Below are positions 37,084 to 42,160 of a stretch of DNA of 64,000 nt, one piece after another (the stretch's first letter is position 1; each line of letters begins with the position of its first letter). A program made the translations under genes and the position numbers. The notes beneath the pieces are model-generated. The model did no database searches. It worked only from the letters and a program-made list of their open reading frames with translations, and was not told the origin of the DNA. This DNA is from Xestospongia bergquistia (taxonomy: Eukaryota > Porifera > Demospongiae > Haplosclerida > Petrosiidae), in assembly GCA_963965975.1 (NCBI GenBank), contig OZ014422.1, positions 6,179,701 to 6,243,700 on the forward strand, in the 5' to 3' direction.

Positions 37084-37154
37084 CAATACTTTAGATACAT
37101 CAATGTCCATTTAGAAATATATCCTTTAAAATAGACATGTCATTAAAAGTATTG
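37084..37154 (-). ncRNA. SECIS element of selenoprotein M
   Basis: On the minus strand, 56 nt after the stop codon. A 9-bp basal helix pairs CAATACTTT (37154-37146) with AAAGTATTG (37092-37084). The core follows: ATGA at 37143-37140 opposite TGAT at 37102-37099, which is the non-Watson-Crick quartet typical of SECIS. Above it a 10-bp helix pairs ATGTCTATTT (37138-37129) with AAATGGACAT (37112-37103), one pair being G-U. The apical loop begins with TAAA, giving the conserved unpaired adenines. This is the RNA signal that recodes UGA as selenocysteine through SBP2. Confidence 0.9.
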
Positions 37155-37210
37155 ATGACTTATTGTGAGTGAGAAAAATCTATGAAAAGCACTTATGTAT
37201 AAAAAGCGAG

Positions 37211-37873
37211 TTACAAATCTTGGTGCTCATTTGGGTTGTTGTCATCATCAGAAGGTGGATCTGCAGTCTTCTTAAAAAAACCTTTAGAATTAAGAAGTGC
37301 ATTGATGTCATCTTCTGACATTTTCATTACATCAACTCGCTAGAGAAAGAGAGAGAGAATTAAATATATACAAAGACTACACACATATAAACCTTACCTC
37401 AATGACTTCATCACCCTCTCCTAAAAATACCATCTCTGGATCTTTACCCCCAATATACTTGATGTCAACATTAGGACTGTTTGGTTAAGATCAACAATTA
37501 AACTTACTATAAACAAAACTACTCTGATTGAACTATTACGTAATTAACTATAGCCTTAATTAATACTTATCATTGGATACTATTCGGGAAGATGGTTATT
37601 AATGAAACTCTTCACCTATTGTAGTAAAAGCAATCATAATGATAAAAAACAAATAAGAAACAATATAACAATGTATACTGCAATGATCTTTATCTACATA
37701 CCTTTGGAAGAGAGTTCAATCGTCATCCGCCACACGTCTAATATTAACAGATATTATTCAGTATATTACATTTTTAAAATCTTACTGACCTCTAATCGAG
37801 CTTTTTTGATGTCTTGACTGCTCACTAGAGCAGCAAAAAGACATACAACTAGCAGAGAAATGAAGAACCTCAT
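37211..37873 (-). CDS. SELENOM: Selenoprotein M, with in-frame TGA for selenocysteine
   Basis: Five exons: 37873-37790, 37737-37702, 37615-37581, 37476-37398, 37339-37211; 120 residues. Exon 1 encodes a signal peptide (MRFFISLLVVCLFAALVSS). Exon 2 holds the redox motif CGGU, with U encoded by TGA at 37723-37725, in a TCGGURLN context matching SELENOM. The core (FINNHLPEYPN then GGKDPEMVFL) and the C-terminal helix (MSEDDINALL) align with vertebrate SELENOM without gaps. The end HQDL is an ER-retention signal. The family is a thioredoxin-like ER oxidoreductase. The third intron starts GTATCCAAT and has TCTTAACC near its 3' end, a U12-type pattern. A SECIS lies downstream. Ordinary gene callers would end this gene at the TGA. 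Confidence 0.92.
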
Positions 37874-37906
37874 AACACAACGTGCATAAAAGAACACGCC
37901 TACAAA
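37874..37906. promoter_or_regulatory. 33-bp divergent promoter gap, SELENOM / ABHD11-like
   Basis: Only 33 bp separate the two start codons of these head-to-head genes. Both 5' UTRs and both core promoters must therefore be extremely short, or the transcripts overlap. No TATA word is present in the gap. Confidence 0.7.
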
Positions 37907-38967
37907 ATGGCAGTGACACTTGCTTTTCAAAGGTTTCCATATTCTGATGATGGAGTACCTCTGGTAATTTTACATGGCGTACTTGTCTCGAAAACCAACT
38001 GGACAACGTTAGCAGAAATGATCATGAAGGACTTAAAAAGAACTGTAAATAATTCATAGTCACTCGTCGAGTCGTGTTCATCAGCAAATGTTTCATTTAA
38101 TAGGTTATTGTAGTGGATGTTCGTAACCATGGTAACAGTCCATCTACTCCTAATATGTCATATGAATTAATGAGTGATGATATAGTTCAGTTACTTCAAA
38201 CAGAACACATCAAGACTTGTATTGTTATTGGTAATTAAGCCAATGTATGATGTATTCTGTTAACTATACATATTTAGGCCATAGTATGGGAGGCAAGATC
38301 GCTATGGCATTAGCCCTGAGATATCCAGACTTAATAGAGCAGTTAGTTGTATTAGATGTTGCTCCAGTAAATAATGGTCCAGGAAAAGATTCTGTACTAC
38401 AACTCATTGAGTGAGTTATTATTAAATGGCATTATATTGATCACTAATGTTAAGAGAAATCTAACATAGATTGTTGCAGTCTCTTAATTTAGCATCAGTG
38501 AAAGATGAAGTTGAAGTTAGCAAAGAGCTTGAGAAATTGCTACTAGTAAAATATTATTTCCATACATTCTGTGATACATTTGGATCTACAGGATAGTGAT
38601 ATTAGAGATTGTACCCTGTCAAATTTATCAAAGAGTTGCACAGGAGAACTATTCTGGATGGTAAATTTTGATGCTGTCAAAGCCAACATTGATCTCCTAT
38701 TTAACTTCCCTGTCTTTTCTGTACCTTATTTTGGTCTTACACTTGTTTTGTTAGGAGCCAATTCACCATCTGTACGGTACACAATATGTCTAATGGAACA
38801 TGTTATGCTGTTATGTCTTTTATAGTTTAGAAATGTATGCAGATATTGTTCAGTTATTTCCTAAAGCAAAAATAGTTACTATTGAAGGAGCTGGCCATTG
38901 GATTCATTATGATAAGCCTTATGAATTGATAAAAGCTTTAAAAGAATTCATTGAGCAAAAAAATTGA
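37907..38967 (+). CDS. ABHD11-like alpha/beta hydrolase (copy 1)
   Basis: Six exons: 37907-38044, 38104-38230, 38278-38410, 38470-38545, 38592-38776, 38826-38967; 266 residues, phases closed. Family marks: VVDVRNHGNSP after strand 4, the nucleophile elbow GHSMGGK, LDVAPV, and the C-terminal GAGHWIHYDKP with the catalytic His. ABHD11 is a mitochondrial serine hydrolase linked to acylglycerol hydrolysis and to 2-oxoglutarate dehydrogenase lipoylation. The usual HGLLGSK oxyanion segment reads HGVLVSK here, with Val in place of the second Gly, unlike copy 2 (HGILGSK). Activity may differ. No clear mitochondrial presequence is visible at the N-terminus. Confidence 0.85.
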
Positions 38968-39075
38968 TTTGAACTGTTAAAAATTAATGCTAAATTCTCA
39001 ATTTTACTTTATTAATTTTAGTCATTGTTTAATAAGGTTTCACCAATATCCACACCCTATGTAGAAGTGGCTGCC

Positions 39076-40902
39076 ATGTTTTGGATCTTTGTAGCAGTAG
39101 TTGTCATCTCTTTGCTGTTCTTCCTTTTAAAAAGGAGAGCTGTCTGTAAAGGAAGAAGTGCAGGAAAAATTAGACCACCAATTCAAGACATTCTTAGTCA
39201 AAATCCCAAAGATATCAAATATGATTTAAAGGACTTGAAATCACCCAAACTAACTGGATATCTATTTCATTTACTAGTCAAATTTGCATTCACACGTCTA
39301 GGAGGTATCACTTTGATACCTAACATCATACGAAACAGCAACCTCAATCTAATGGGAGGTGAGTACATACCTGAGAAACCAACCTTGTATCCTAAATTTA
39401 AGTCTACAACAAAGGATAATGGGAAGTTACTCAATGATAAAGTTTTACAGACCCTTGCTGATCAATACGTGGTTGATACCAGTGGTACCTTCCATCATTA
39501 CACTTCTCTTGACTATTATCAAGCTTATAATTCTTGTAAATGTACACCAAGTGATGTAATTCAAGCTGTTCTTGATGCTATTCAACTTTCTAACCAAACT
39601 AATCCACCACTACGAGCTATAATAGAAACAGACAAGGCTAGTGTATTAGCAATGGCTGAGGCTTCCACCGAACGATGGAAAAAAGGCCAACCATTATCTA
39701 TTCTAGATGGAGTTCCCATTGCTCTTAAACCTGAATTTAAACTCACTTACTATTCCTGTAAAGGTGGAGCTACTTTTGTACCAGCTTGCACCAAAGCTAT
39801 GCAAAACTCTCTTATTCTTCAGAGACTTCAAAATTCTGGTGCTATAATTATTGGTACTACTAATATGCAAGAATTTGGAACTGGAGTATTAGGGTCAAAT
39901 CCGCATAAAAAGTATTTGACACCTCGTAATCCTTATAATACCCTTCATTATCCTGGAGGAAGTTCATCTGGATCAGCTTGTAGTATATCAGCTGGTCTTT
40001 GTCCGATTACTTTAGGTGGAGATTCTGGAGGATCTATACGTATACCAGCTGGATTATGTGGTATATCTGGTTTAAAACCAACTTTGGGTCTTCTTGATAA
40101 AGCTGGATTTATGCCTTTAACATATTCTGTGGGTGTTGTAGGACCTTTAGGTGCATCAATATTTGATCTAGCTCTTACAATGAACATTATTGGTTCTGAT
40201 GAATCGAGAATTGATTTGGAAGACTTTGGTAAAGAAGATTTAAGTGGTATCAAAATAGGGATTTATACTGAGTACTTTAAACATGCTGATAATGAGATTG
40301 TTGCTCAATGTAAGAAAGCTGTGCAAGAAATGGTTGCACTTGGAGCTGAAGTTCATGAAATAGTCATACCAGAATTAGAAGAAATGAGAGTGTCTCATGC
40401 TCTTACCACAACTTCAGAATTTGGGAGTACTTTAGCTGTTGATCTAGATAAGAAATTTGAACAATTCAATGATGAGACTTTAGTGGTATTAGCTGCCAGC
40501 TATAATATTTCAGCTGTTGAGTATATCAATGCTCAGAAACAACGTACAAGATCACTGATCATCTTGGAAAAGATCTTTAAGGAAGTTGATGTAATAGTTA
40601 CTCCAGTAACAGCTTGTGTTGCTCCATTAATTCCTCCTGGAGCAGTGAAGTATGGCTATGGTGACTTGGAACTGACTGGTCATTTGATGCGATTTATTTA
40701 CCTAGCAAATTTAGCTGGTATTCCAGGCGTGACTATACCAGTTGGGGTGAACTCAGAGGGACTACCTATTGGTCTCCAGTTAATGGGTAATGGTAATTGT
40801 GATGGTCATCTACTTCGGGTTGCTTATTCCTTGGAAAAGCAAGTATCATCTAAAATGACTAAGCCCAAAATTTACTTTGACATTCTTGGAAAATTTTTGT
40901 AG
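39076..40902 (+). CDS. FAAH-like amidase, copy 1
   Basis: Intronless frame of 608 residues from the ATG at 39076 (context GCCATGT). The upstream part of the frame (from 39022) has no ATG and begins at an acceptor-like TTTTAG, so a 5' exon is possible. N-terminal membrane anchor (VAVVVISLLFFLL), then an amidase-signature domain. Catalytic triad by motif: Lys218 in GVPIALK, cis-Ser296 in GGSSSGSA, nucleophile Ser320 in GGDSGGSIRIP. The family hydrolyses fatty-acid amides such as N-acylethanolamines; substrate here is not known. It follows the ABHD11-like gene by 108 bp on the same strand. It differs from copies 2 and 3 around the catalytic Lys and the next 40 residues. Confidence 0.9.
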   Translation: MFWIFVAVVVISLLFFLLKRRAVCKGRSAGKIRPPIQDILSQNPKDIKYDLKDLKSPKLTGYLFHLLVKFAFTRLGGITLIPNIIRNSNLNLMGGEYIPEKPTLYPKFKSTTKDNGKLLNDKVLQTLADQYVVDTSGTFHHYTSLDYYQAYNSCKCTPSDVIQAVLDAIQLSNQTNPPLRAIIETDKASVLAMAEASTERWKKGQPLSILDGVPIALKPEFKLTYYSCKGGATFVPACTKAMQNSLILQRLQNSGAIIIGTTNMQEFGTGVLGSNPHKKYLTPRNPYNTLHYPGGSSSGSACSISAGLCPITLGGDSGGSIRIPAGLCGISGLKPTLGLLDKAGFMPLTYSVGVVGPLGASIFDLALTMNIIGSDESRIDLEDFGKEDLSGIKIGIYTEYFKHADNEIVAQCKKAVQEMVALGAEVHEIVIPELEEMRVSHALTTTSEFGSTLAVDLDKKFEQFNDETLVVLAASYNISAVEYINAQKQRTRSLIILEKIFKEVDVIVTPVTACVAPLIPPGAVKYGYGDLELTGHLMRFIYLANLAGIPGVTIPVGVNSEGLPIGLQLMGNGNCDGHLLRVAYSLEKQVSSKMTKPKIYFDILGKFL

Positions 40903-41015
40903 TTTGATTGACTTAGGAATTAATCAAGGAAATACATGTGTCTGCTATACATGTAATTTGTTAATATTATTAATTATTAACATGTAATTTGCTATTTGTT
41001 GTTATAATATAATGA

Positions 41016-41021
41016 AATAAA
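41016..41021 (+). terminator. AATAAA polyadenylation signal of FAAH copy 1
   Basis: AATAAA about 114 bp after the FAAH copy 1 stop. It lies only 24 bp before the stop codon of the convergent ABHD11-like copy 2, so the two 3' UTRs probably overlap. Confidence 0.55.
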
Positions 41022-41044
41022 TATTGTTAGATGATTGAATTTAC

Positions 41045-42160
41045 TCATGATGTTATAAATTCTTTCAAACGTTTCAATAGTTCAAGAGGTTTATCGTAAT
41101 GAATCCAATGGCCAGCCCCTTCAATAAAATCTATCACAGCTTTAGGAAATAATTGTTTAATGTCTGGATATACCTCGGATCTAAAAAGACGTCTTAAACA
41201 AATAATTTAAAATCTTGTTCACCTTATATACGATGAATTACTACCTCCCAAAAAGAGAGTTGGACCATGATATTGCTCAGATAGTGTTGGAAAATCTTGC
41301 AAGGAGTTGATGTTAGCTTCAATAGCGTCCAAATTACAAGCCCAGCGATGCCTTCCTGTATTTTGATCTCTGACTAAATTTGTAAGCAGAAATCCTCTGA
41401 CAACAGAGTCCTAGAAAAGACAACAAATTTATTATATTGTCTGATGTATACAGTATATATGTATACTGGTATAGTGGGTTGTAGTATTTTGCTAGCTTCT
41501 CTTCTGTTTGTAACAGAATCTAGATGAAGCAGTTTCAATAATCTACTGGAAAGAACAATGGTTGTTTTAATCATGAAAAACTTATTTTTCACTTGATGTA
41601 TTGCATAATATTTGAAGTGCCTTTAACAGGAGCAACATCAAGTACCACTAATCTTTCTACCAACTCTGGATATCTCAGAGCTAATGTCATACCAATCTTG
41701 CCTCCCATACTATGACCTAGATAGATTTAGGGTAACTAGTATAATAAAGACATTACAAGTTAGTTAAAAGTAGGTAATTAACTCTTTATAAAGATTGACA
41801 TTAAATTATATTAGCATGTACACAAGTAACAATACCAATTAAGATGCTGCTATTGATATTTTGTGATTGAAACAACTGAACTAAATCATCACTCATCAAC
41901 TCATATGACATGGTGGGCAAATGTGGACTGTCACCATGGTTTCGAACATCCACCACAACGACCTATATAATGTACATTATACTGTCCTTTCAGCTATTTG
42001 TACAAACATTTCGTTGTAGTTCATTGGTTAGTTTTTTTGCCATGGTTCTCCAGTTCATCTTAGATCCAAGTATGCCATGAATAATAGTCACAGGATTACC
42101 AGCAGTGATGCCAGCAGCTGCTAGTCTGTAGAATGCTAAATTAGCTATTTGATTAGCCAT
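41045..42160 (-). CDS. ABHD11-like alpha/beta hydrolase (copy 2)
   Basis: Six exons matching copy 1 in intron positions: 42160-42008, 41962-41836, 41716-41593, 41545-41467, 41410-41223, 41180-41045; 268 residues. Motifs: HGILGSK (intact oxyanion segment), VVDVRNHGDSP, GHSMGGK (nucleophile Ser), LDVAPV, and GAGHWIHYDKP with the catalytic His. Start ATG at 42160; no in-frame ATG lies just upstream. Together with copy 1 it brackets FAAH copy 1. It keeps all motifs expected of an active hydrolase and is the better candidate for the ancestral function. Confidence 0.87.

What the first reader, a model, noticed from the sequence alone, without database searches (positions are those of the whole stretch)
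37084..37873. Sponge selenoprotein M with UGA codon and matching SECIS
The TGA at 37723-37725 sits exactly where SELENOM has Sec (CGGU). A SECIS with AUGA/UGAU core, a 10-bp perfect upper helix and loop adenines lies 56 nt after the stop. Two independent signals agree, so recoding is well supported. Standard annotation would split or truncate the gene.
Basis: partly seen in the sequence, partly recalled or inferred. Interest (0 to 1): 0.72.

Follow-up and report, generated by a model that had tools for sequence, protein, structure and literature searches.

The report
Ordinary sponge selenoprotein M gene
The sequence holds an intact selenoprotein M gene of a sponge-like animal, in which one stop codon is most likely read as selenocysteine with the help of an RNA hairpin after the gene; this is real, but selenoprotein M is already reported from sponges, so it is ordinary.

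Summary
On the minus strand, 37873-37211, five exons with GT-AG borders splice to a 120-codon frame whose only internal stop is TGA at 37725-37723, exactly at the Sec of CGGU. The protein matches Pfam Sep15_SelM (E 2.7e-22) and the solved selenoprotein M 2a2p (E 7.8e-20; 34 of 84 aligned residues identical). The hairpin 37154-37084 has the form-2 SECIS layout: Rfam SECIS_1 aligns AUGA, AAA and UGAU in register at 27.7 bits, E 0.00035. That is below the gathering score of 35, but level with the SELENOW and SELENOF elements of the same genome (28.0, 29.6). The genome also encodes tRNA-Sec, SBP2, eEFSec, SepSecS and an SPS2 with its own TGA, and SELENOF, SELENOW and SELENOS with TGA at the Sec place. 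Selenoprotein M is in print for the sponges Amphimedon and, as cited by others, Suberites. Verdict: correctly identified, well supported, ordinary. The species was not identified; transcription and Sec insertion were not tested.

The parts
37790..37873 (-). SELENOM exon 1: MRFFISLLVVCLFAALVSSQDIKKARLE, signal-peptide-like N-terminus
   Evidence: donor GTCAGTAAG; signal peptide judged by eye
37702..37737 (-). SELENOM exon 2, 36 nt, TCGGURLNSLPK, holds the Sec codon
   Evidence: acceptor AG, donor GTATGT
37723..37725 (-). In-frame TGA, U of the CGGU redox motif
   Evidence: aligned to the CGGC of the solved SelM chain 2a2p
37581..37615 (-). SELENOM exon 3
37398..37476 (-). SELENOM exon 4
   Evidence: overlaps the sub-threshold Pfam stretch
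37211..37339 (-). SELENOM exon 5 with stop TAA 37213-37211; C-terminus NEHQDL, ER-retention-like
   Evidence: retention role is inference from the KDEL-like ending
37084..37154 (-). SECIS element, form-2 layout: lower helix CAAUACUUU/AAAGUAUUG, core AUGA 37143-37140 and UGA 37102-37100, 10-bp upper helix, AAA plus mini-helix at the apex

Best explanation
This is an intact SELENOM gene. Its mRNA carries a UGA at the Sec position. SBP2 binds the SECIS in the 3' UTR and brings eEFSec with Sec-tRNA(UCA), so that the ribosome inserts selenocysteine instead of stopping. The product is a small secretory-pathway protein with a thioredoxin-like fold and a CGGU redox centre, held in the ER by its HQDL tail, where it acts as an oxidoreductase. 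Gene, codon, hairpin and machinery genes are shown by sequence. Recoding, ER location and redox activity are inferred from homology.
For: Spliced frame with one internal TGA and clean splice sites. PF08806 E 2.7e-22 over positions 2-75 of 75. PDB: SelM 2a2p E 7.8e-20, then Sep15 2a4h E 1.4e-7, the only two distinct sequences at E up to 10. SECIS_1 27.7 bits, E 0.00035, core in register; fold z -3.93. Same-genome elements: SELENOF 29.6 bits, SELENOW 28.0, SELENOS 40.3. tRNA-Sec 78 bits, over the family's cut-off, anticodon tca. SBP2 exons, best solved match SBP2 7zjw E 4.3e-11. eEFSec exon over Pfam's cut-off, PDB eEFSec E 0.0044. SepSecS, five stretches on C13, all over the cut-off. SPS2 exon LKGUGCKVPQEELLKLLEG with TGA. 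SELENOF YAGAILEVCGUKLGRFPDIQ, SELENOW MSVLVKVIYCGGUGYKR, SELENOS GGGGUG*.
Against: The SECIS is below Rfam's gathering score of 35 bits, is not listed in the whole-window scan, nor at E up to 10 when 311 bases were given, nor in the genome-wide SECIS_1 search, which scores only the best candidates and also misses SELENOF. The minimum-energy fold does not show the core quartet. The exon-by-exon Pfam search of the genome gave only sub-threshold matches. No transcript, protein or selenium data, and no SELENOM from another sponge was available to test conservation.
Confidence: 0.95

Rival explanations
1. Pseudogene or truncated gene: the TGA is a true nonsense mutation and the product ends after 32 residues.
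For: TGA is a standard stop. No second SelM-type locus was seen at E up to 10 (an exon-by-exon search of low power, whose other two matches lie at the SELENOF locus).
Against: No other defect: the 87 codons after the TGA are open and the splice borders intact, the family match covers the whole domain, the TGA is exactly at the Sec position, and a SECIS follows.
Confidence: 0.02
2. The 36-nt TGA exon is skipped. It is a multiple of three, so the frame is kept and a protein without the redox motif is made.
For: Exon length is 36 nt and skipping would preserve the frame.
Against: The exon encodes a stretch that is closely matched in solved SelM (ETCGGC-LN-L) and has normal splice borders; the SECIS would then have no purpose. 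Skipping as a minor isoform cannot be excluded.
Confidence: 0.02
3. The hairpin is a chance AT-rich stem-loop and Sec insertion depends on another element or does not occur.
For: Below Rfam's gathering score. Looser scan settings give 3 to 7 hits in the window against replicate means of 0.6 to 2.95.
Against: Right strand and place, E 0.00035 for 71 bases against all 4227 families, and a score like those of two other selenoprotein SECIS elements in this genome.
Confidence: 0.02

Closest known systems
Selenoprotein M (SELENOM/SelM), solved chain 2a2p (mouse, recalled)
   Same: Sep15/SelM redox domain, CGGU motif (CGGC in the solved chain)
   Different: 34 of 84 aligned residues identical, with Cys read at the TGA. 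Recalled, not tested here: mammalian SELENOM SECIS carries CC in place of the apical AA (Korotkov 2002; not held; part of its title stands in a reference list), while this one has AAA
Amphimedon queenslandica SelM (Jiang et al. 2012, PMC3473315, Table 1)
   Same: A sponge genome with one SelM selenoprotein gene
   Different: Its sequence was not seen (the paper points to an additional file; no supplement look-ups were allowed), so identity to this gene is unknown; this genome's species is not identified
Suberites domuncula selenoprotein M (Mueller et al. 2005, FEBS J)
   Same: Sponge selenoprotein M, linked to spicule formation as cited in PMC3997428 and PMC3751301
   Different: Original paper not seen; no sequence compared
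Selenoprotein F (Sep15)
   Same: Same Pfam family (one search lists Sep15 second); the genome has its own SELENOF with CGU and a SECIS
   Different: SELENOF has CGU, the window gene CGGU; the window gene matches SelM far better

Membership tests
SELENOM | Sep15/SelM thioredoxin-like domain | tested here: met
   PF08806 E 2.7e-22, profile 2-75 of 75; better match to SelM than to Sep15
SELENOM | CGGU motif with Sec encoded by in-frame TGA | tested here: met
   CGGU as the SELENOM motif from passages of PMC10668967
SELENOM | N-terminal ER signal peptide | tested here: inconclusive
   MRFFISLLVVCLFAALVSS reads as one by eye; no predictor was available
SELENOM | C-terminal ER-retention-like tetrapeptide (recalled) | tested here: inconclusive
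   Ends HQDL; function not testable
Eukaryotic SECIS (form 2; form names recalled) | AUGA/UGA core, upper helix of about 10 bp, apical AA followed by a mini-helix | tested here: met
   helices and mini-helix; core in register with the Rfam consensus; positions. The quartet itself is not formed in the energy-based fold
Eukaryotic SECIS | Rfam SECIS_1 gathering score of 35 bits (a curators' cut-off, not a biological requirement) | tested here: not met
   27.7 bits; same-genome SELENOW 28.0 and SELENOF 29.6 also fall below it
Sec-encoding organism | tRNA-Sec, SBP2, eEFSec, SepSecS and SPS2 in the genome | tested here: met
   55, 57, 62; 13, 69, 70; 51; 14, 40. PSTK was not searched
Selenoprotein | Selenocysteine present in the protein | not testable with these tools
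   needs mass spectrometry or 75Se labelling

The most novel reading that the evidence does not exclude
The sponge SELENOM mRNA uses an AA-type form-2 SECIS, which would make the CC-type apex of mammalian SELENOM (recalled) a derived state within animals. In addition, the gene is packed head to head with an alpha/beta-hydrolase gene, 33 nt between start codons, so that expression of the two may be linked.
Probability: 0.4. Interest if true: 0.2.

Novelty: new member of a known kind. Interest (0 to 1): 0.15.

Why it matters
It is a clean example of a stop codon that is very probably recoded as selenocysteine, and of a gene that an annotation pipeline blind to Sec would cut after residue 32. It adds one well-supported gene to what is known of sponge selenoproteins, but changes no current view.

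Tried and rejected
Rfam at gathering threshold over the whole window gave no match, and at E up to 10 over 311 bases it did not list SECIS_1; only the 71-base stretch given alone did. A first home-made SECIS scanner missed this element and those of SELENOF and SELENOS; it was widened, knowing the target. No SECIS was found for SPS2: L020 gave no hit and one, at the loosest setting and on the other strand, and I saw none by eye in the 3' sequence. SBP2 was first sought through PF01248 (nine matches). I read only three of the nine loci on the strand of their match (L024, L026, L030), and these look by eye like RPL7A, NHP2 and RPS12; one search printed the plus strand only, so the other minus-strand loci were not read. 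The SBP2 locus found later is not among the nine. One search found 14 papers and listed 13, 12 of them on sponges; none of those 12 pairs about 146.5 Mb with about 19.0 kb (Xestospongia muta: 18.99 kb but 158.52 Mb). Primer-based identification was considered, but the paper listing was not followed up. Paper searches for sponge selenoproteins; PMC9925728 (passages) deals with peroxidases and gave nothing on SELENOM. A structure prediction was not run: the spliced protein is not read letter for letter from the window, and a solved homologue exists.

Full report
Observation. On the minus strand the window holds a five-exon gene, 37873-37790, 37737-37702, 37615-37581, 37476-37398 and 37339-37211, with GT-AG introns and 363 bases in frame including the stop. 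The frame has one internal stop, TGA at 37725-37723, inside the 36-nt second exon. The translation is MRFFISLLVVCLFAALVSSQDIKKARLETCGG-U-RLNSLPKVKSFINNHLPEYPNVDIKYIGGKDPEMVFLGEGDEVIERVDVMKMSEDDINALLNSKGFFKKTADPPSDDDNNPNEHQDL.

Family. Read with Cys at the TGA, the protein matches Pfam Sep15_SelM over almost the whole profile (E 2.7e-22). In the PDB it matches two distinct sequences at E up to 10: selenoprotein M (2a2p, E 7.8e-20; mouse, recalled) and Sep15 (2a4h, E 1.4e-7). It shares 34 of 84 aligned residues with 2a2p (the Cys read at the TGA is one of them). The TGA falls on the Sec position of CGGU, the SELENOM motif according to passages of PMC10668967. The hydrophobic start and the HQDL end fit an ER-resident protein; this is inference. 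In the genome-wide, exon-by-exon Pfam search only sub-threshold matches appear: one in this gene and two at the SELENOF locus. No second SELENOM was seen, but that search has low power.

SECIS. The stretch 37154-37084 folds with z -3.93 against 200 shuffles, 1 of which folds as well. In the 184-base 3' context z is -4.11 and 0 of 200 shuffles fold as well. For comparison, SELENOF, SELENOS and SELENOW elements of this genome give z -4.99, -2.42 and -1.91. The layout is a 9-bp lower helix, AUGA opposite UGAU, a 10-bp upper helix (one G-U), an apical AAA and a 4-bp mini-helix: a form-2 SECIS (form names recalled). Rfam SECIS_1 matches its full length, 1-64, at 27.7 bits, E 0.00035, when these 71 bases are searched alone. 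It is under the gathering score of 35 and is not listed in wider searches. The elements of SELENOF (29.6 bits) and SELENOW (28.0 bits) in the same genome are also below 35, while SELENOS reaches 40.3. So the score is not unusual for this genome. The thermodynamic fold does not show the non-canonical quartet, which its energy rules cannot represent; it pairs part of the core differently. A home-made pattern scan at its strictest setting finds this hairpin alone in the window and 1 hit in 20 Markov replicates; at that setting it recovers SELENOF but not SELENOS or SELENOW. At looser settings it finds 3 or 7 places in the window, against means of 0.6 to 2.95 in replicates, so the pattern by itself is not decisive.

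Machinery. The genome in which the window lies (146,460,797 bases, 21 contigs) has one tRNA-Sec over the family's cut-off (78 bits; ARAGORN calls it tRNA-SeC with anticodon tca) and four weaker matches below the cut-off. It has an SBP2-like gene on contig 12 (two stretches; best solved-structure match SBP2, E 4.3e-11), an eEFSec exon on contig 1 (PF21208 over cut-off; PDB eEFSec E 0.0044), SepSecS in five stretches on contig 13 and SPS2 on contig 10 with its own in-frame TGA (LKGUGCKVPQE). The selD profile stayed below its curated cut-off exon by exon, and the same search rings in all 14 control genomes, over the cut-off in 2; the SPS2 call therefore rests on the motif together with those exons, and no SECIS was found for it. 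SELENOF, SELENOW and SELENOS carry TGA at their Sec positions (names by eye from the motifs). PSTK was not searched.

Mechanism. From established knowledge of eukaryotic Sec insertion (also summarised in passages of PMC10668967): SBP2 binds the SECIS core and eEFSec delivers Sec-tRNA at the UGA. The product would be a CGGU oxidoreductase of the ER. The sequence parts that this needs were found, PSTK apart (not searched); the events themselves were not observed.

What is known. Jiang et al. 2012 (PMC3473315; passages and section 5 read) list one SelM selenoprotein in Amphimedon queenslandica among 22 selenoproteins. PMC3997428 (passages) and PMC3751301 (passages) cite selenoprotein M of Suberites domuncula; the second names Mueller et al. 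2005, which I did not see. The finding is therefore a further example of a gene already reported from sponges. Whether this genome is one of those species is open: one contig is 18,997 bases long and holds a frame that I recognise as cox1 under code 4, and none of the 12 sponge assemblies listed fits both lengths.

Verdict. The interest is low because nothing in it departs from the known family.

Noticed in passing
37874-37906: SELENOM (minus, ATG at 37873) stands head to head with an alpha/beta-hydrolase gene (plus, ATG at 37907; Abhydrolase_1 E 2.8e-19 on three joined exons). Only 33 nt separate the start codons, so the 5' ends probably overlap or share a promoter.
   Followed up: partly
37870-37887, minus strand: A five-codon upstream frame (ATGCACGTTGTGTTATGA) ends overlapping the SELENOM start codon (ATGA); whether it is in the mRNA is unknown (sequence printed).
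   Followed up: no
within 39060-41500, plus strand: Open frame of 613 residues of an amidase-signature enzyme (PF01425 E 3.2e-77), resembling fatty-acid amide hydrolase; the FAAH name is by eye.
   Followed up: partly
L014, L015 (contig 10, 1729731-1729898 and 1739924-1740109): Two further weak selD-like stretches with four TAA each, about 6 to 16 kb from the SPS2 exons; possible partial copies or chance frames.
   Followed up: no
L023, L026, L027, L029 (contig 8, 2405171-2425009): Four L7Ae-domain matches close together. L026, the only one read on its own strand, looks like NHP2 by eye; L023 and L027 share similar stretches with it. Possible tandem copies.
   Followed up: no
L010:1501-1564 and window 37151-37087: The SELENOW and SELENOM SECIS elements share the apical UAAAGGAUA.
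   Followed up: no
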